Source of the DNA: Kondoa malvinella
Taxonomy: Eukaryota > Basidiomycota > Agaricostilbomycetes > Agaricostilbales > Kondoaceae
Assembly (NCBI GenBank): GCA_039545315.1
Contig: BCIM01000002.1
Location: 709,369 to 773,368 of the forward strand
Length of the DNA stretch: 64,000 nucleotides
Direction: 5' to 3'
Below are positions 26,854-38,464 of this stretch, piece after piece; position 1 is the stretch's first letter; each line of letters begins with the position of its first letter. The translations under genes were made by a program, and so were the position numbers. The notes beneath the pieces were generated by a model. The model ran no database searches. It worked only from the letters and a program-made list of their open reading frames with translations, and was not told the DNA's origin.

Positions 26854-28007
26854 ATGCAACGATTAAGCAAAGAAGATATGGCAGCGATGCCGGCTCTGAT
26901 CAGTGAATACACGCGTCACCTCGAAGAGGAACAAGATTGGATCAGGCCAGCTAGCGCAAACTTTTCTTGCAACGATCCTGTTTCTCAGCAGCGGGACGAC
27001 ATCTTCAGAAGCTTACATCAACCTCTCCCTCAGATTCAGCTAGAGCACAGCAAGCAAACGACAAGAAACTTGATAGTCAATCATTATGTCTTTCGTCGCA
27101 TCTTTTCCGAAAATCCGGAAGCCTGTGTGAGAGCTTTGCACAAGTTGTACCCAACCACCTGGACAAATCCGAACACCCCGGTATGGACGACACGTTCATC
27201 TTCGTCATATCGGCAGATCAAGCATGCGACTCGTTCCGTGCTTTGGACATAGATCAAAGAGCAATCATCCTGCAATCCAACGTTCTGTTTACTATGCATC
27301 GTCTTTTAGCTCTATTCGTCCAAACATCCTATCGTGACTCTACTGGCGAGGACGTGGCAAAACTCAACAAGCCGTACATGACGCTGCAGAGGATGGCCAT
27401 TATGCTAGCCAAACAACGCGATGCGGTAGTGGATCTTGTGGTTGAAAGGACCCCTCCAGCGGTAAAGGCACTATGGCAGAAGCTGTTGCACACAATATTT
27501 GCCTGGACGAAAAAGTCAACGGTAGCAACTTCAGGGCATAGTTGGCTGTGCTATTGGTGCGCTACGCTCTGTATCACCTTCGGTCTGGATCTCCCAATAG
27601 GCTCAGAGGTGACCCTCAGTCCGGAAGAATGGCGCCTGGAACGGGAGCAAATCACTCCTCAAGAGCGACTGGATCAATGCATTAAATCATTGGACGGCAA
27701 CTTCCCCAAGTGGACCACAGATTTCATCTGCTTGGGCTGTGGTAGCCATTACACAGTGAAGACCCACAAACCTGCTCAACCGTTCAAAGTATGTTCTGGG
27801 TAAGGACGAGATTCTAAATTGCCTCCGCTGTAACTAATGCCCTTTGCTAGCTGCTCAACTGCCATGTACTGCTCTGGAGGATGCCAGGTGTCAGGTGTTT
27901 GCTCCTTTTATACAGATTACGTCGTGAGCTCATAATATGCCGTGTCAGATTGGAAGGCGGGACATGGCAAGCGCTGCTATGGCAAGAGACGAGACAAGAG
28001 CAGCTGA
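26854..28007 (+). CDS. MYND zinc-finger protein
   Basis: The C-terminus is a MYND finger assembled from three exons: FICLGCGSHYTVK, then CSTAMYCSGGCQ, then DWKAGHGKRCYGK, giving the C-C-C-C-C-C-H-C ligand order. MYND fingers bind Pro-rich partner peptides. The upstream 280 residues are helical and not recognised. The ATG at 26854 starts QRLSKEDMAAMPALISEYTR. The first reading frame must shift near 27.1 kb; a 56-nt intron at 27076-27131 restores the frame exactly (joining RNLI to SFAQVVPNHL), though its 3' end is only weakly pyrimidine-rich. Later introns start about 27801 and 27882. The left arm of the inverted repeat begins within about 60 bp of the stop. Confidence 0.75.
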
Positions 28008-28059: not shown

Positions 28060-28260
28060 CAAGGTAATGGAATTGACCTGCCTGGCGTTGGGCTGTGTGT
28101 CTATGTTATGATTGATACGGGAGAGGTTCAGAGCTTTGACAGACATCTGACTGCTTCCTGTGTCTTGTGGCCTTGTAAACAGGAATGGAGTTCGTTGAGT
28201 CTGGCACGAGGGGCAAAGGAGGTGTCAAGTTTCAAAACTTGACCGGCTGTCAAGTCTACT
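28060..28260 (+). pseudogene. Partial copy of the gene at 33035-33389
   Basis: Plus-strand coding-like pieces LCVYVMIDTGEVQ and RGKGGVKFQ parallel VSVRLMVDGEEQ and AKGGVKFET of the intact gene in the right arm, in the same order and spacing. The 5' half of that gene is missing here; the copy begins just after the MYND gene. No ATG-to-stop model equivalent to the right-arm gene can be built, so it is read as a truncated duplicate. Confidence 0.45.
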
Positions 28261-28445
28261 ACTACTACTACAAGTTTGGTGTGAAATGGGTCCACATCGG
28301 TGATAAGCTGGGTACGCGTATATGGTTTCTCCCCCGTCTTTGTACAAGCCTTTTTTTTTTCTCTGGTCTCGATGCAAAGAGTACATGATGCCTGAGCACT
28401 TATTTATCAATAGCTGTCAAGGAGCTCCCAGCCCAGTCTCAGATC

Positions 28446-28551
28446 TTCTGCATGCTTTTACCGAAATATGACTGCTTTATACATCGACTCTTCTTTTTTT
28501 TGACTTCTGCATACTTTTCTCAAGAAGTACTGCTTCAGACATCGACTCTTT
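28446..28551. repeat. Imperfect tandem repeat, two copies, 59-bp period
   Basis: Two copies of a roughly 48-base unit start at 28446 and 28505. Both begin TTCTGCAT and both end ATCGACTCTT, with a poly-T run between them. The corresponding place in the right arm (around 32880-32830, reverse complement) has only one copy, so the duplication arose after the arms separated or was lost on the right. Confidence 0.7.
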
Positions 28552-28671
28552 GACTATCTGCAGGCTGCACCATTCTATGGATCTGATGATCCAGCTAGTC
28601 AAGGCTTCCGCACGGGCCTTGACTCCATGCATGCAATAAGGAGAGCTTCAAACCCTCTGCCGTTGACCTGC

Positions 28672-28963
28672 CTAGGTTTCTCTCGCATCGTTTGCTCTTG
28701 CAGTCAATTCGCGCAATGCTCTTTCAATTTTCGGCGCTGTCTCCTGCGCTGGCACCGATCATGGACCGTGGACCAGTGAGTGCCCGTCGCATTTGCAAGT
28801 ACAAATACCATTCAAGTCGGCCTCCTACCTTCACAAGGTATGAGCTGTAACGACGCAGAGAGGGATGGTCGATAGCACTGATATAGTGATCCGAAGAATG
28901 AGAGAAAGAGCGTTTAAGAGAAGAGCGGTCGTTAGGAGGGCGCAAGTTAGGCCTCAGGCTCAT
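28672..28963 (-). CDS. Short unknown protein encoded in the left arm
   Basis: Two exons, 28963-28835 and 28743-28672, joined in phase 0 by a 91-nt GT-AG intron, give 66 residues. Exon 1 is basic and Ser-rich (MSLRPNLRPPNDRSSLKRSF...). Exon 2 is a charged amphipathic helix, KIERALRELTARANDARET. The exon-2 sequence recurs in the right arm as MERALRGLTVRTDHARET on the opposite strand, which argues it is or was coding. No known family was recognised. The N-terminal exon is outside the conserved blocks. Confidence 0.4.
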
Positions 28964-29283
28964 AACCTTATAAAGATGGGCGCGCTGCTCCGACTCTCAG
29001 CCACTTGATACAATCGAGATGAGATGAGAAGAAGAAGCAGAACCGAAAACAGAAACAGTCCTTCGCTATTTTCATCGAGCCCGGCTGTTCTGTTCTTCCC
29101 CTCTCTCTTGGTCAGGGCATCAGACCAGACTGTCCTGGTCTCCTTATTGTCTCTCCGTCAACAAGTTGAAGCGACTCTTCCAATCCATTTCCAACAGAAA
29201 GTTATACTGTACTCGAAAATTGTATCAATGTATTGCGTTCTTATGACCGAGATTGACGTACATTACAATTCATCTCAGTCAAT
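28964..29283. other. Spacer between short gene and HNH gene
   Basis: A plus-strand ATG frame (about 29024-29287) is low-complexity at its start and has no splice or homology support. A TATAAAG element is present just upstream of the short gene. Nothing else was seen. Confidence 0.4.
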
Positions 29284-30921
29284 CTAATCGCTACCCAGGC
29301 CCGCTGAGAACCCTCTGATCCTCATCCGGCAACATTGCGCATAGTGCCAGTCCATCAGGCGAGGGTCCGGAACTTGAAATTCATCATGACCTGGAAATAA
29401 ACGAAACACTGTGGCGGGATCGATGACTTTGCCATGGTACATTCCTTCAAACCTGGGATCGAAGCTGTGAAAGATGATTTTGTCGTCCTACAACAGGCGC
29501 TTGAGCGAATTACGCAGACGTTATAGCCAAACTCACGCGCGTATAAAAAGAACACTGAAACATATCGTACGCTCTATGGATGCTCGTGACTAATAGAACT
29601 GCGGCTGAAGTTTCGTACGCCGGATCTGGTACATCTGGGCCAAAGATAGAAGCGTAGATCTATCAAGGGTCAACCTTTGAATTAAAAAAAGACAGGCAGA
29701 CTGACATCGGCGCGTCGTTTCGGCACTAGGTGTGCAGCATGACATAGTTGTGCGGATTTGCCGCTGACGATACAGATCCCATCCCTTATCAAGAGATTTT
29801 CCCGGAGGGTTGACTTCAGATATTGTGAGCATGGATTGAAGGCATAGAGTACATGGAACCTTACTTGCATCGTGGATATTTGTGACTCTGAAAGGGATGT
29901 AGTATCATTGAAGGTCTCACCGTCCCTGTGCGGTACCTGAGAATAACGTCCGTCCGGCCCCGAAGCCCATGTGAAGGCATCGCCAAGAGCTAGTAAGGAG
30001 CTATAAGAGAAAACAAAAGTCCCACGCAAACAGAAAAACGTTGCTTACTAGGAATGAAAGTGTATTCAAACTCTCCCCGACCGACTGAGGCTTCCCATGG
30101 AATATCAGGCACTACAGGTTGTCCAGTATTGCTCGACTTGAGAACGCCAGCTTCGTTGACGAGGACCGAACATAAACGTGCAATATCACGCCAAAGCGTC
30201 AAGCGGCCCGACTCGAGCCAATTCACAGGTAACTTGAAAGGTTGGCCATCATAGCCGTGACAGTGAATGGATATAACGGAGGCCCTATGCCAGGTCAACT
30301 TCTTGTAGTGTAGCGCATTCTTTGGTAGTTCAAGTATAGCGGCAGCGTCCATGCAAAGTACTGTTCCAAGAGATTAATGCGGACTCGTAGCCACACTTCC
30401 ACCATACGTACTTTGAAGTTATTCGTTTAAAACTTACTTCCAGTAGGGTTTGGCACCGTTGGCGGTTCGCAAAAGACACTTGAGCACTGCTTCTGCCTGT
30501 ATCCGTGTGCGATCCCGCTTGACAGTACCAGAATGTCGGACGGTGAACGTTTCGGAAGAAGAGTACAAGGCACAAAATGATATCGAATGAGGACGGCGCT
30601 CCTCCTCTAACGGAAAGAGCGCCTTCCCCTGGACGGGCGCGATGACCAGGGACTGATCCCAAGTCACGCTGAGTCTCTCCTACTACTATTGCAAACCTCA
30701 TAAATTGCAAGTCAAAACATGACCTCGCTCGAAATTCCCAGAGCTCCTTCGTCTGTTCGTGGAGCTTTTGTAGCTGTTTATCGTCTTCTCGCACGGGCAG
30801 GTGTCTTTCAGAACTATCGGTGTATAATAGTGATAGCGTAGGGTTACGTTCAGTGGGATTGGCAAGGGTGTCGGCTGGTGTAGCTCGGTTTTGTTTGTAG
30901 CTCACCAATATGAGTGGCCAT
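29284..30921 (-). CDS. Fungal HNH-endonuclease-domain protein (HNH_2 type)
   Basis: The nuclease core spans two exons: LLIRDGICIVSGKSAQLCHA then HAAHLVPKRRAD, followed after an intron by IYASIFGPDVPDPAYE, SIHRAYDMFQCSFYTRDDK and DPRFEGMYHGKVI. The C-x-V-S/T-G turn, the AAHLVP histidine and the later H-RAYD histidine fit the HNH_2 pattern common in basidiomycete and ascomycete accessory genes. The upstream region includes ELPKNALHYKKLTWHRASV and FPLEEERRPHSISF. The 3' end (TAG 29284-29286) and the four last exons are firm; the first exon (ATG 30921) is tentative because phases do not close cleanly. There is no signal peptide. It is the central gene between the two inverted arms. DNA cleavage is inferred from the fold only. 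Confidence 0.65.
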
Positions 30922-31608
30922 TAGTGCCATGCAACAGGATCCTCCAAGGCATTGATCACACGTGGGCCACAAGGGAGACCAGGGTGGAGGGTGTGATTAA
31001 TGCAAACTATTTGTCTTGCGCTGCAGCGAAAGATAGCGCCCATATCTCGCAGAGTGAGCTGCAGAAGGTCGGCCTCGGGCTTGCGAAAATGCAGGACCTC
31101 TCTTGCATTGAGTTTCTGCTTTATAATGGTATATCGTTTCAAAAGTTTAGAGCTCCAGCTTCGACCTGATAGGCTTAGCGAGACAGTCTCTGCCGTGTAA
31201 GAAGCTGGAAGTAGACACAAGCTGTGTAGAGGTAAATGATTTGGTTCGTGATTGTTCACAATCGAGAGCCATTTTGCAAAAGAATGCACCCCAATCAGAG
31301 CAGCAACAAGTTCCCTTGTGTCCTTTGATGTAGACCCCGTGCGCCATAAGATAGTGTCGGCCCACTTGAGTAAGAGTCGCTAGTTCGCCCAAGATGCCCA
31401 GCCGTGCAGATACCCAGCCGTGCGTGGTGTCAAGTTGCCATTGGGAGTAGAATATCTATTTGCTGGGCATTAGCAGCGTTTTGCGATGGAGACACGAATC
31501 TCGACGACTTGCATAGTTCGAAAATTCACGAGTGTAATCTTCTCCCACTTGTCTGCCGTATCTACGGAAAATCACCTGCCACATACACGTCTGCTATCGC
31601 TTGTGGAC
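30922..31608. other. Spacer upstream of the HNH gene
   Basis: Frames here are short and lack ATG starts or splice partners. A short direct duplication, CCCAGCCGTGC, occurs near 31396 and 31416. No gene or RNA is supported. Confidence 0.4.
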
Positions 31609-32580
31609 TCATGCTTGCGGTAGATCACATAAACGCAGCAGGTCATCGAAGTCCAGATTGGCGCTGGAAGCTGGATCTACAGGCCGGATAAGGGAAGCCA
31701 AAAGATCGTCAAAATTACCAGGCATTCCCAACGGTGCGACTGGGGCTGCACCGAATCCCGCTAGGAGTGCATCTACATCCACATCTGCTGGCAAAAGCTT
31801 TGCGCCCACGGAGAACTGAGCCGGTTGTCCTGCTCTGGAGCTTCCCACTGAGTTGTCGAACGTGGCCAAAATTTCCCTCTTCGGCATCCGTAAAGTTGTT
31901 ATCATCTGAGATGGGAGGGCCGATCAACACTCACTGACGACAAGGTTCGATGACAGAAGCTCGCCACTGGCGTCGTCGGCAATAAAAGAACGCATGGGCT
32001 CACGATACCTGTCGACATCATTAGCCATTGCCATGCCCAGACCGTCGTACGGGGGAGGTGCGCCAAGAAATGTGTCTCCGAGCATCAAGCGTCGGACAGC
32101 TGCATCAAGTTCATGCATGCCATTGCGGGGGCAAGAAGACCTTGCGAAACGGCTTCGCGATGCAGCAGATCTTGATATGGCTTCAGCTGATGACTGATGC
32201 TCATGGTGGCATCTTGGCGATGTTGGATTTCGTGATCGAGGTACGTAGCCAAAATTCGTGCCCATTGTCTTTTGCCCATTTCCCTTTTGCCGGTCGAAGG
32301 ACTGGCTTGTCGAAGATCACGAATCCTATTGGCTGGATCTCGTGATCTAGCAGTGGGATATTCATAGATTGTCATGTTGTCTTCTGTGTTGGTGATGAGT
32401 TACACTTCAAGCAGGCCATCGATGACCGACTCACTCGATACCAGGTCAGCCACCGGTTCTTCGGCTTTTCATGATGATAAAAGCTGGTGTAAGACTGTCA
32501 ACACATGTCAGATCCAAACAAGCTCTGTATCTACTCATCGCTTTGCCAGGAGCTTTATCGAGAATCTGTTTAAACCATTG
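31609..32580 (-). pseudogene. Unknown fast-evolving or broken gene within the island
   Basis: Minus-strand coding-like blocks follow one another: RYTQWFKQILDKAPGKAM (32.5 kb), YEYPTARSRDPANRIRDLRQ and GKREMGKRQWARILA (32.3 kb), NGMHELDAAVRRLMLGDTFL and DDASGELLSSNLVV (32.0 kb), and a C-terminal block with two FDDLL motifs (GNFDDLLASLI and LDFDDLLRLC) ending at 31609. Joining them needs unusually short introns (29-41 nt) and one unexplained frame change near 31850. The two acidic-hydrophobic FDDLL motifs resemble transactivation or docking motifs, and the middle is strongly basic, which would fit a DNA-binding regulator, but this is speculation. It could be a real gene with small introns or a decaying one. 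Confidence 0.35.
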
Positions 32581-32862
32581 AGTGTAACGTGTCTCATGCA
32601 ATGTAAGGATGAGATGAGTTAAGTGGCAATTTGTACTTGTCCAGGCCAGGGCACTTACTGGTCCATGGTCCATGATCATTGCGGCCGAAGGATGAAGCAC
32701 CGAAGAATGGAAAGAGCATTGCGCGGATTGACTGTAAGAACAGACCATGCGAGAGAGACACAGACAGGTCAAGAGCGAAGAGTGTTGAAGCCCTCCTTTT
32801 GTAGGCATAAGTCAAGGCCCGTACATGAGGTCTATGCTCGAAGGACCAAGCGTATTCTTTGA
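32395..32862 (+). CDS. Right-arm counterpart of the short unknown gene
   Basis: Opposite in strand to the left-arm short gene and in mirror position. The second part contains MERALRGLTVRTDHARET, matching the helix encoded in the left arm. A first exon starting MSYTSSRPSMTDSLDTRS could be joined through an intron from about 32604, but a one-base indel relative to the left copy changes the frame, so this copy may be defective. Its first exon would overlap the opposite-strand unknown gene, and one of the two is probably wrong. Confidence 0.25.
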
Positions 32863-33240
32863 GCAAAGCATGCAGAAGATCTGTGATCAGGCTGTAAACT
32901 TTTTGACAGCTATTGTTACCTACGTGCTCAAGCGTCGTGCATTCTTTGCATTAAGTCCATCGAAAATTACAGATGTAAAAATTGCCGGAAAACCCATCTA
33001 AGCGCTCCAGCTTATCTCCGATGTTGACAGCCGGTCAAGTTTCAAATTTGACACCTCCTTTGGCGGCCGTCGTGTGGGAGACGATACGACCTTTGAAGTT
33101 GCAGGCCTTTCCCGCAGCTAGCACAGCACGATCCTGCCAATCACCTTGAGACAAGCATGCTTTACACATGCTGAGACAGGCTGACCTGTTCCTCTCCATC
33201 AACCATCAATCTCACAGAGACGTCATGCCGGTCGCTGCTG
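32590..33240. repeat. Right arm of the diverged inverted repeat pair
   Basis: Reverse-complement counterpart of about 28060-28840; see the left arm for matching blocks. It includes the 3' half of the minus-strand gene at 33035-33389 and the helix-coding exon of the short gene. The core between the arms is about 3.7 kb. Confidence 0.75.
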
Positions 33241-33389
33241 ACGCGCACATTGAACCTCTGGCCATCTTGCGATTCTACAAAGCTGCTGGCTTTTCTGGCT
33301 GTCCCCTCTGACGTTGAGCTGTATTCGGTAGCGACACCACTAGCAGTCTCAAGAGTAGCTCGAAGACCTAGCGAGTCAATTACAGGCAT
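33035..33389 (-). CDS. Small protein, DUF7918-like beta-rich domain (tentative)
   Basis: ATG 33389 begins MPVIDSLGLRATLETASGV. One intron (about 33144-33187) leads to DWQDRAVLAAGKACNFKGRI and ends AKGGVKFET at TGA 33035-33037, about 103 residues. The pattern of an aliphatic strand, a Cys/Ser segment, GQRFNVRV, then VRLMVDGEE recalls the fungal domain in which a FxVxV strand is followed by VYVDG, but I am not sure of the family. The 3' half is duplicated in the left arm. An upstream extension to 33446 exists only with a TTG start. Confidence 0.45.
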
Positions 33390-33631
33390 GCTTGTGTGCA
33401 GCGTTAAGCGATAGTGGTCGTCTTGGACAGGTGAGACGCGTGTCAAAAGTAAACACCTCGCCGCTTGCTGTTATCCTCTGCTCTGCGCGCTGCTGTGAGC
33501 TGTATTATTGACCATGCGCGTCTTGTTGTCTGCGAGCACATGCCGCTCGTTCATGACGCTTTTTGCCAAGACTTCTTTAAAACTCGCGGTCACAGCTTTC
33601 TGCCTCTCTTTCCTGCACAAAACACATACAT

Positions 33632-34919: not shown

Positions 34920-36409
34920 TCATCGCTTCTTCCGCCAGAATATTGGCGACAGCGATCGAGCCCGTTTCGTGTATGAGCGGCGACATTTGGCTTGTGGCTG
35001 TTTCTGAGCGATCTGAGTCTTCTGTATCGCAAGAGTAGACGTCGATTCTTCCTCTGTGTCGTCTTCCTGACCTGCCTCTGTTGAGGTCGCTCCTGTTGCT
35101 GATCCTGACGAGCTGCCGGAGACATTGCCCCCACAATCAATCACCTCTTGAGGCAAACCATGACGCATGGCTGTTTTGTCACGAGCCGCCTTACCATCTG
35201 GTCCAGCCAGCCCTTCTGGATTGTAGTAGCCTGTCGAATTGATGCTGTTGAAGTTCCAATAGCTGCATTCGTTCGGGAGCGAAGCAGAGTCGATTTCGTT
35301 GATGTTCGAAGCGTCGCTCAGAGATCGGTCGCCGCCTTCCCATTCAAAGCTGCAGCTGTCTGTTAGCTGCGCGGTTGCTTGAGGGCCGCCCTGGATCTCC
35401 TTCAGAGATATATAGTCAGCAGCTACTCGAGCCAACAATCGAGCCAATTGACGAACCAGGTTTGCACAGTTCCTAAAGAAGGGCAAAGGCTCCTCTAGAA
35501 CTCCGTAGCTGTCCTATGTTGACGGTCAGCAGCCTTCTCAACGAGCAAAGGTCAACTCACATGAACGCCATACCTACCAGGGGCAATATCAGACACGGCT
35601 GAGGTGAGTGAAGAATACATACATTACCCACTGCATCACATATTTTCCGTCTTGAAGCCAAATTGGCATTGTTATCATCGTTCTACAGGCCAAGTCGGGG
35701 CTGGAGTTGTCTTGTTCTATACCATCTTGAGCAGGGAGATTCCATGGGCTGTAGTATGCGTAGGCTGGATCATCATAGCCTAGACGTCTGCCACCACAAT
35801 TTTGACCCATGCTAACGGCATATTTGAGAGCTGCTCAAAGTTGCTAATAAGGGTGCTTACCAGCTAATCTTGATGAACTGCAAGCTGTTTCAGCATCAGG
35901 CGAGGTATGAGTTGCTCGAGACAGACATTGTTTGCGTCATGTAAAGCGTCCTTATCGGTTTCCTCTTTTCCTTCATCGTCAGCCAAAATTATAAATGGGC
36001 ATGGCAACTTACGACCAGCAGGTACGATGGAAAACCGGGCAAAGCCTCCCCCTTAAAAATTGTCAGCCGTGGATGGCTATGTCGAGTAGAGCAGACTGAC
36101 AATGATCTAGACAGGCATTGAGCCACGACAGAACAGAGATAAGAGAGCAGGCGTACTATTATATGTCCATGTTGCTTCGATCTGTTCTCCTCTTTGATAG
36201 GTATTTCCTGTCGGAATGTCCGTGTTCGTATTTTCGCAATTGTTGGTCTCGCCAATCTCTCCAAACAGGCCAGCGCGCGGCTTAGGGGAAGTTAGCCAGT
36301 TCTACGATCCATCAGCATAACTCAAGCTAAAGAAGGCGAGATGACCAACATGAGCATTCGTACTCGGCAAGATGAGCGACGCCAATGGAATGAAGATCGA
36401 CACATGCAT
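34920..36409 (-). CDS. Secreted LPMO-like protein, paralogue A
   Basis: MHVSIFIPLASLILPSTNA is a signal peptide whose predicted cut leaves His as the first mature residue (NA/HV), the hallmark copper ligand of lytic polysaccharide monooxygenases. Next come NWLTSPKPRAGLFGEIGE, a Cys-rich start (CENTNTDIP), the motif TYNNHWGGFARFSIVPAG with a second candidate His, then NCGGRRLGYDD, MPIWLQDGKYVMQWVMYGVH and CSFEWEGGDR. The last part is Ser/Thr-rich and ends basic. The NNHW motif forms only after splicing an intron at T/GG. These features match the general LPMO layout but no named AA family was assigned; a copper-binding or structural role is equally possible. It shares all motifs with the next gene. 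Confidence 0.55.
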
Positions 36410-36855: not shown

Positions 36856-38464
36856 CTAGAACGATACTTTCCGGCGCCTTCGCCATCCTCTATGCTTCTC
36901 GTCCGCTTCTATATTAGAATGCTTACTTTTCTTCGCCTTTGACTTGTCGCTGTCCCTGCTGCTTTGCTTGACAGTCGTTCGCTGGGTCCTGTTTGCTCCG
37001 ACCTGACCACCACACGCTTCGACTTCTTTAGGCAGTCCCGCTCGATNCCCCGAGGCGTCATGAACGGCTTTGCCGTCCAAGCCAGTCATTCCTGCAGGAA
37101 GGTATTGACCGACCGCGTCGATATTGTTGAACAAGAGGTAGCCGCACTGGTCGGACATGTCGTCAATATCGTTCACGTTTTCGGCACTGCTCAAAGCCTG
37201 TCGATCAGGGGAATGAGTGAGATTTTTCCTGCTATCAGGCGCAACGTACTCTGTCTCCGCCCTCCCACTCGAATCCACATCCATCTGACGGCTTTGGTGT
37301 CGCATTGGGACCTCCAATGATAGCCTTCACATTCTTCAGAGCAAGCTCAAGGAGTGTTCGAAGATGCACGCACGACATTTGCACAGCTACGGAAGAACGG
37401 AAGGATCTCGTCCACCACACCACTGAATCATTGTCAGCTGGATCACATCACAACGCTCAGGTGAACAGACAATGCATTCTAAAGTCGAAAATCAGTAAAA
37501 CATCTTGATAGGTCGAGACAGCTTACACCCATGTGAACTCCATACATGACCCATTGTAAAACGTATGAGCCATCTTCAAGCCATGTTGGTATGGTCAAAG
37601 GCGTATGACAAGCATTTTCTGCGTCTGCGTTGTCTTGATGGGAAAAACCGGACTGCTGCCCCAGGTTGTAAGGAGCGTAGTAGTCGACTGTAACGTATGT
37701 TCAGCAAAGATGTTATGGAACTTCGCGCAGGACTAACATTCGGGCTAAAGTAGTCGTATTTCAAGCGTGAGCGATTCGCAAATGTGACTGTCGAGGATAA
37801 ACTGACCCTGTCAAGTCCTAGCTGCCTGCCGCCGCATGTCTACATGCACACCTTAATCCTGATTGGTGAAGGAGGGCCGGACTGACCTTCGTATGGCAAG
37901 TGATTTTGACGAACTGTTAATAAAGCTCGTGAGCACGATTTGACATTTAATCTACACGAAACGCACGTTGTTCGGATCGTGAAAGGCTTCTGGATCTTGT
38001 TCCTCTTTTTTTGAGATGTGTCAGAGCCTGGACGAACAAAGCGCGAAGATGCTTACGACCAGCAGGTACGACTAAGGCAAACAGAAAGCTGGATTGTCAG
38101 AAGGTACGAGCCCCTATGGAATAGCACACGTACTGCTAAACCTGACGAAGCCGTTCCAGTGATCTGCCAACAGTATCAGCAAAATGCGTTCAAGAGTACG
38201 AAAAAGCGCACTGTTATAGACCCAACTCGCATTGAAAGTCTGCCCTCGTTGATATATCTGACCCTCTGGTATCGTCCCGTTTTGATTTTCGCAATGGCCT
38301 TCATCGCCAATCCATCCAAACAGTCCACCTCTTGGGACTGGATGAGTCAACCAGTTCTAATATTTTGAATTATCAGAATCCTTTTGTCCAGATTGAGGTA
38401 TCCGTACATGGGCCTGAGCGCTGAATGCAAGGGCCGACCAGAATAGATAATTCTTCACATGCAT
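36856..38464 (-). CDS. Secreted LPMO-like protein, paralogue B
   Basis: Same architecture and intron positions as paralogue A: signal peptide MHVKNYLFWSALAFSAQA cut before His (QA/HV), NWLTHPVPRGGLFGWIGD, then YNNHWNGFVRFS-IVPAG across introns, a CGGRQLGLD segment, TIPTWLEDGSYVLQWVMYG and CGFEWEGGDR. The tail differs: it is Lys/Arg-rich (SKAKKSKHSN...) where A is acidic then basic. One N at 37047 affects a single residue. Tandem head-to-tail placement and matching splice positions indicate local duplication. Function as for A; a substrate cannot be named. Confidence 0.55.

What the first reader, a model, noticed from the sequence alone, without database searches (positions are those of the whole stretch)
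28060..33389. Accessory island: HNH-nuclease gene between two diverged inverted arms
Two arms of roughly 650-780 bp match each other in reverse orientation in at least three separated blocks (for example 28212-28253 against 33064-33024). Between them sit an HNH_2-type nuclease gene and an unusual unknown gene. Each arm carries one copy, whole or partial, of a short gene and of a DUF-like gene in mirror order. A nuclease inside inverted arms, next to fast-changing secreted genes, could be a mobile or self-propagating cassette, or a locus remodelled by an inverted duplication. Arm identity is too low for a recent single event, so the island may have persisted for some time. No target-site duplication was found by eye.
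Basis: partly seen in the sequence, partly recalled or inferred. Interest (0 to 1): 0.75.

Follow-up and report, generated by a model that had tools for sequence, protein, structure and literature searches.

The report
Old jumping element carrying nuclease-like gene
The island is an old copy of a family of cut-and-paste jumping elements in a fungal genome; this copy carries a nuclease-like gene, probably as a passenger, while larger relatives in the same genome carry sugar-use or metal-pump genes.

Summary
The inverted arms are real: they are the two ends of one transposable element, window 28205-33074 (4870 bp). Each arm starts with a terminal repeat (CACGA-type) that two pattern scans place at 20 spots in this 19.1-Mb fungal genome, the window's two included. 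A 3-bp repeat, TGG, flanks the element. Four other inward-facing end pairs (7.8, 10.2, 29.0, 33.1 kb) each have their own matching 3-bp flank: 5 matches among 48 end combinations, all between the two ends of one locus. The 29-kb relative has an open frame for a protein with the DDE, C(2)C and H(3)H residues of EnSpm/CACTA transposases; 5 of its 22 database relatives bear PF02992, though it does not hit that profile itself. The window copy shows no transposase. It keeps a frameshifted element gene and an intact five-exon HNH_2 gene, most likely cargo rather than motor. Larger relatives carry a sugar transporter with a GH3 enzyme, or heavy-metal P-type ATPases. Fungal EnSpm elements with another cargo (TET/JBP) are published, so this is a new variant of a known kind. 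Present-day movement and strain differences could not be tested.

The parts
28205..33074 (.). whole element, 4870 bp, EnSpm/CACTA-type, non-autonomous
   Evidence: paired termini and matching 3-bp flanks
28202..28204 (.). left target-site duplication TGG
33075..33077 (.). right target-site duplication TGG
28205..28256 (+). left terminus, CACGAGGGGCAAAGG...
   Evidence: 27 of 28 letters of the family consensus; aligned with 13 other termini
33023..33074 (-). right terminus, CACGACGG... with 3 extra bases relative to the family
28205..28822 (+). left inverted arm
32612..33074 (-). right inverted arm
28716..28785 (+). copy of the first exon of gene A in the left arm, frame shifted
   Evidence: nucleotide match to the right arm; frame read by eye
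29284..30352 (-). HNH_2 gene, exons 30352-30049, 29989-29865, 29813-29706, 29659-29537, 29487-29284; 287 codons without internal stop
   Evidence: splice model and paralogue comparison; PF13391 28.0 bits
31924..32719 (-). element gene A, starting in the right arm; frame disrupted near 32085-32110
   Evidence: core 59% identical in protein to the C7 copy; seven copies in the genome; disruption read by eye; exact ends not known
26854..28007 (+). left neighbour, MYND-finger gene (start approximate)
   Evidence: PF01753 6e-07 on a piece of it
33162..33446 (-). right neighbour, first part of a DUF7918-like gene whose frame runs into the right terminus
   Evidence: (23.6, 25.0 and 22.1 bits, all below the cut-off of 27)

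Best explanation
Window 28205-33074 is one old, non-autonomous insertion of an EnSpm/CACTA-type DNA transposon. A transposase made elsewhere, such as the one encoded by the 29-kb sister element on contig C6, would have recognised the CAC...GTG ends with their GTCAAG/CTTGAC palindromes, cut the unit out and joined it into a staggered cut, leaving the 3-bp duplication TGG. It carries an HNH_2 gene as cargo, probably captured from the host. Shown by sequence: paired ends, matching flanks, sister elements with other contents, a transposase in sister elements, an open HNH gene. Inferred: cut-and-paste movement in trans, capture from the host, passenger role of the HNH gene.
For: Termini at 20 places by two scans, with 0 matches for both reversed control patterns. 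Sharp outer boundary in 14 aligned termini. 3-bp flank identity in 5 of 48 combinations of 8 plus and 6 minus ends, all five being the two ends of one locus; no extension to 4 bp. Subterminal motif 37 times inside and 0 times outside 13 termini, 250 bp each. Transposase in C6, inverted in part in C2, with stops in C7; 22 relatives, 5 with PF02992; D219 and D314 in 21 of 21 rows, C333, C336, H644, H648 and E664 in 20 of 21. Fungal EnSpm criteria from PMC12730594 (passages). HNH: 284 codons compared with its paralogue, pN 0.32, pS 0.80.
Against: The C6 transposase does not hit PF02992 itself at E<=10. Four of the 14 counted termini have no identified partner. The small unit in L054 has unlike flanks. 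In C2 and C6 a variant CAAA-type end lies nearer than the chosen partner. The right window terminus is degenerate. No empty site or second strain was seen. The origin of the HNH gene was not traced.
Confidence: 0.85

Rival explanations
1. Two separate insertions of the same repeat family landed in opposite orientation on either side of a resident HNH gene; the gene is a bystander that never moved.
For: HNH_2 genes occur at other places of the genome; inner parts of termini also occur singly (L061), and 4 of 14 counted termini have no known partner.
Against: The outer flanks of the two ends match (chance 1 in 64), and so do those of four other pairs, with no match in the other 43 combinations.
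Confidence: 0.08
2. The HNH protein takes part in spreading the element, as a homing-type nuclease would, or gives the element a selfish advantage.
For: The gene is open over five exons and under protein-level constraint while gene A in the same element is broken. A transposon lineage with a homing endonuclease is known in animals (KolobokP, PMC9587614, search listing only).
Against: No close HNH copy in the other four paired elements. Where I expect the Asn of the HNH motif (recalled), both the window gene and its paralogue read Ala-Ala-Val.
Confidence: 0.05
3. An inverted duplication of a host locus made the arms, without a transposon.
For: Each arm holds the start of gene A in mirror orientation.
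Against: The arms end at a terminus found at many unrelated places and flanked by a target duplication. Inverted arms of 0.1 to 2.7 kb occur in all five paired elements.
Confidence: 0.02

Closest known systems
Fungal EnSpm/CACTA transposons (PMC12730594, PMC1636069, and CNIRT6 of Cryptococcus in PMC12810828; passages read)
   Same: CAC..GTG termini, 3-bp target duplications (CNIRT6 and the Puccinia EnSpm families), DDE transposase with C(2)C and H(3-4)H motifs; some fungal EnSpm carry a non-transposase gene (TET/JBP dioxygenase).
   Different: Here the contents differ from element to element (HNH_2, sugar transporter with GH3, heavy-metal ATPases), lengths reach 33 kb and the inverted arms reach about 2.7 kb. 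No TET/JBP search was made.
CNEST of Cryptococcus (PMC12810828, passages)
   Same: Terminal repeat starting CACGG, related transposase supergroup.
   Different: 2-bp TA duplications, about 7.2 kb; here 3-bp duplications.
Starship giant elements (PMC12134995 search listing; in the basidiomycete Tremella, PMC13066641 passages)
   Same: Large fungal elements with varied cargo genes.
   Different: Starships are classified by a tyrosine recombinase; here a DDE-type transposase was found. No recombinase profile was searched.
KolobokP (PMC9587614, search listing only)
   Same: A DNA transposon with a nuclease gene inside.
   Different: It encodes its own transposase with a His-Me finger homing endonuclease and is an animal lineage; here the HNH gene sits in an element without transposase.

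Membership tests
EnSpm/CACTA | termini 5'-CAC..GTG-3' | tested here: met
   window ends CACGAG and CACGAC; 13 of the 14 termini aligned start with CAC
EnSpm/CACTA | 3-bp target-site duplication | tested here: met
   TGG at the window; 5 of 5 inward-facing CAC-type pairs; 5 of 48 combinations overall
EnSpm/CACTA | inverted terminal repeats with subterminal repeats | tested here: met
   37 motif copies inside and 0 outside 13 termini; arms in all five pairs
EnSpm/CACTA | DDE transposase with C(2)C and H(3-4)H, in the family | tested here: met
   C6 protein: D219, D314, C333-x2-C336, H644-x3-H648, E664
EnSpm/CACTA | hit to the Transposase_21 profile PF02992 by the element's own protein | tested here: not met
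   no hit at E<=10; 5 of its 22 relatives carry PF02992, one confirmed at 3.6e-9
EnSpm/CACTA | transposase in the window copy itself | tested here: not met
   a genome search with the C6 protein at E<=1e-6 gives no match in the window; hence called non-autonomous
EnSpm/CACTA | observed transposition or empty sites | not testable with these tools
   no other strain or related fungus held
HNH_2 (PF13391) | profile score above the curated cut-off | tested here: met
   window protein 28.0 bits against 21; its paralogue scores 15.4, below the cut-off
HNH_2 (PF13391) | His-Asn-His active site | tested here: inconclusive
   first and last His visible in the translation; Asn apparently absent in both paralogues; the expected position is recalled
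Starship | tyrosine-recombinase captain gene | not tested
   no such profile was searched

The most novel reading that the evidence does not exclude
In this fungus an EnSpm lineage is a general carrier of host genes, a DDE-transposase counterpart of Starships: it takes up whole genes or small clusters (nuclease-like, sugar uptake with GH3, metal pumps) between expandable inverted arms and moves them as units, while the element's own genes can decay.
Probability: 0.45. Interest if true: 0.75.

Novelty: new variant of a known kind. Interest (0 to 1): 0.58.

Why it matters
Large cargo elements in fungi are mostly discussed as Starships. Five EnSpm-type units with exact ends and target duplications in one small genome, with different contents in each case where genes were recognised except the two large ones, would be a second and simpler route by which fungi move whole genes. 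Because the ends and duplications are exact to the base, presence or absence in other strains is directly testable.

Tried and rejected
Other transposon types (LTR, Helitron) were weighed while only one end per copy was known; paired ends with target duplications replaced them. Insertion of the element inside the DUF7918-like gene was tested: the left flank keeps a 59-codon open frame, but this piece does not resemble the paralogues (88 of 100 shuffles scored as high) or any Pfam profile at E<=1; not claimed. A 1-kb unit in L054 was first taken for a two-ended element; its second end matches the consensus in only 20 of 28 letters (shuffles of 217 kb reach 18-20) and its flanks differ. A C12 element (terminus at 237089, flank AGT, with a degenerate candidate partner near 219480) was noticed after the fact and is not counted. 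Searches with gene B (0 of 7999 scored) and HNH (0 of 558) found no relatives; the database held only a few named fungal relatives even of the transposase, so this says little. Literature: searches (15 of 30 papers listed; 4 of 4; 9 of 9; 12 of 20; 15 of 106; 0 found; 12 of 64) listed, by title and start of abstract, no fungal EnSpm/CACTA with HNH, sugar or metal-ATPase cargo; only open-licence papers are held and the lists were cut.

Full report
Observation. A self-comparison of the window finds the arms in three reverse-oriented blocks of 79, 73 and 92.5% identity. The best local score of the two arms is 183; 500 shuffled pairs reach at most 32.

The genome. The window is C2:709369-773368 of an assembly of 19,088,850 bases in 20 contigs. 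The genes modelled have short GT-AG introns. The four relatives of its transposase that bear an organism name are from basidiomycetes (Hypsizygus, Mycena, Galerina, Puccinia). That the fungus is a basidiomycete is inferred; no call names it.

The arms are transposon ends. The first 50 or so bases of each arm recur in the genome: 16 matches to a 22-base probe and 17 to a 23-base probe from the inner half, each with up to 3 mismatches, against 0 for the reversed control patterns; together these are 20 places, including the window's two and some partial ones. In an alignment of 14 copies conservation starts abruptly (at CAC in 13, CAA in one) and by eye nothing outside is shared. GTCAAG/CTTGAC motifs occur 37 times in the first 250 bp inside 13 termini and 0 times in the 250 bp outside.

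Pairs and target duplications. Inward-facing CAC-type pairs are the window (4870 bp), C3:825417-833254 (7838), C1:1005949-1016157 (10,209), C6:243720-272756 (29,037) and C2:56590-89669 (33,080). The three bases outside the two ends are identical in each: TGG, TAA, CAA, CTT, TGC. Among 8 plus-strand and 6 minus-strand termini, 5 of 48 combinations match, exactly these five pairs, and none extends to 4 bases. Of the 20 places, six were left out of this count: two variant CAAA-type ends (C6:268520 and C2:69100), two disrupted ones (C2:71834 and C1:3495687) and two not fetched (C1:2261977, C2:1006399). In C2 and C6 the variant end lies nearer than the chosen partner and its flank (ATA) does not match. 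Four of the 14 counted termini (C7:123531, C1:2269741, C3:985433, C12:237089) have no identified partner.

The motor. Inside the C6 element one open frame of 940 codons (C6:264219-267038) encodes a protein with 22 relatives at E<=1e-3 among 7993 scored; one, P0001, is identical over the compared length and comes from environmental sources, and five carry Transposase_21, PF02992. Puccinia protein P0020 hits that profile at 3.6e-9, while P0001 and P0010 do not at E<=1, and the C6 protein does not at E<=10. In an alignment of the query with 20 of the 22 relatives, D219 and D314 are in 21 of 21 rows and C333, C336, H644, H648 and E664 in 20 of 21, the missing one being a gap. A 2025 paper classes fungal families with CAC..GTG ends and 3-bp duplications as EnSpm and gives the C(2)C and H(3-4)H motifs for that clade (PMC12730594, passages). 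The C2 element has the same gene with its first part inverted, the C7 region a copy with stop codons, and more distant matches lie at C2:413513 and C4:612455; none lies in the window.

Cargo. The window's HNH_2 gene reads through 287 codons in five exons and scores 28.0 bits against a cut-off of 21. Its close paralogue, C1:2310222-2311277, is 51% identical over 284 codons, with pN 0.32 and pS 0.80: protein-level constraint, though synonymous change is saturated; the paralogue itself scores only 15.4 bits. The HNH_2 profile finds 11 other places, 10 over its cut-off and 3 over the whole profile, none within the five paired elements; this search missed the two intron-split genes named here, so it is a lower bound. 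The C1 element holds a sugar transporter (PF00083), a GH3 enzyme (PF00933, PF14310) and a protein with a sub-threshold Zn-cluster match (E 0.25). The C6 element holds two genes with HMA, E1-E2 ATPase and hydrolase parts, that is heavy-metal P-type ATPases; whether each is whole was not checked, and copper as substrate is recalled, not tested. The C2 element has very similar open frames for one of them, judged by eye; 12.6 kb of it were not read. In the C3 element two frames gave no Pfam match at E<=0.01.

Element genes. Its window core is 59% identical in protein to the C7 copy over 87 codons, but its frame is disrupted near 32085-32110, and the exon-1 copy in the left arm is shifted; both were read by eye. 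Gene B, 593 aa in C7, lies beside gene A in C7, C2 and C6, shows dN/dS of about 0.14-0.18 in two exons between two copies and matched none of 7999 scored proteins. That either binds the ends, as second EnSpm proteins do, is a guess. Extended inverted arms are a family trait: about 600 bp in the window, 222, 99, 786 and about 2700 bp in C3, C1, C2 and C6.

Flanks. Left stands a MYND-finger gene (PF01753 6e-07). Right lies the first part of a DUF7918-like gene, below that profile's cut-off in each search, whose frame runs into the right terminus. The missing part was not found on the left, so insertion into that gene is not claimed.

Mechanism and verdict. The best reading is an old EnSpm-type cut-and-paste insertion, moved in trans, with an HNH_2 gene as passenger. 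The longer arm blocks are 21-27% diverged and gene A is broken, so it has probably been in place for long; no date is given, because inverted arms need not start identical. The boldest reading left open is that this EnSpm lineage is a general carrier of host genes. Fungal EnSpm with TET/JBP cargo is published and Starships are reported in a basidiomycete (PMC13066641, passages), so cargo as such is known; the varied host cargo on an EnSpm chassis makes this a new variant of a known kind.

Noticed in passing
window 35133-35714 and 37012-37637 (minus); 36155-36304 and 38210-38359 (minus): Related stretches repeat in the same orientation about 1.9-2.0 kb apart (43-73% and 60% in protein), as in a tandem gene family.
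   Followed up: no
C2:64943-67965 (L060, L054): The first part of the transposase gene in the 33-kb element is inverted relative to the rest.
   Followed up: partly
C7:123531 and C7:138754 (L044, L055): A terminus with genes A and B and a transposase with stop codons, and a second gene A copy in opposite orientation about 14 kb on, look like a further element whose right end was not found.
   Followed up: partly
C12:219480 and C12:237089 (L047, L048): Possible 17.6-kb element: a degenerate terminus preceded by AGT faces an intact one followed by AGT. Seen after the fact.
   Followed up: partly
L062:402-512 (C1:3495600-3495711): A terminus whose outer and inner halves are separated by about 55 extra bases.
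   Followed up: no
L054:900-1907 (C2:68099-69106): About 1 kb between two weak inverted termini of the CAAA type, with unlike flanks; it lies between gene B and the transposase gene.
   Followed up: partly
P0001: A protein identical to the C6 transposase over the compared length is held from environmental sources on a 3496-base contig.
   Followed up: no
window 31392-31423: A 16-base direct duplication inside the element, between the HNH gene and gene A.
   Followed up: no
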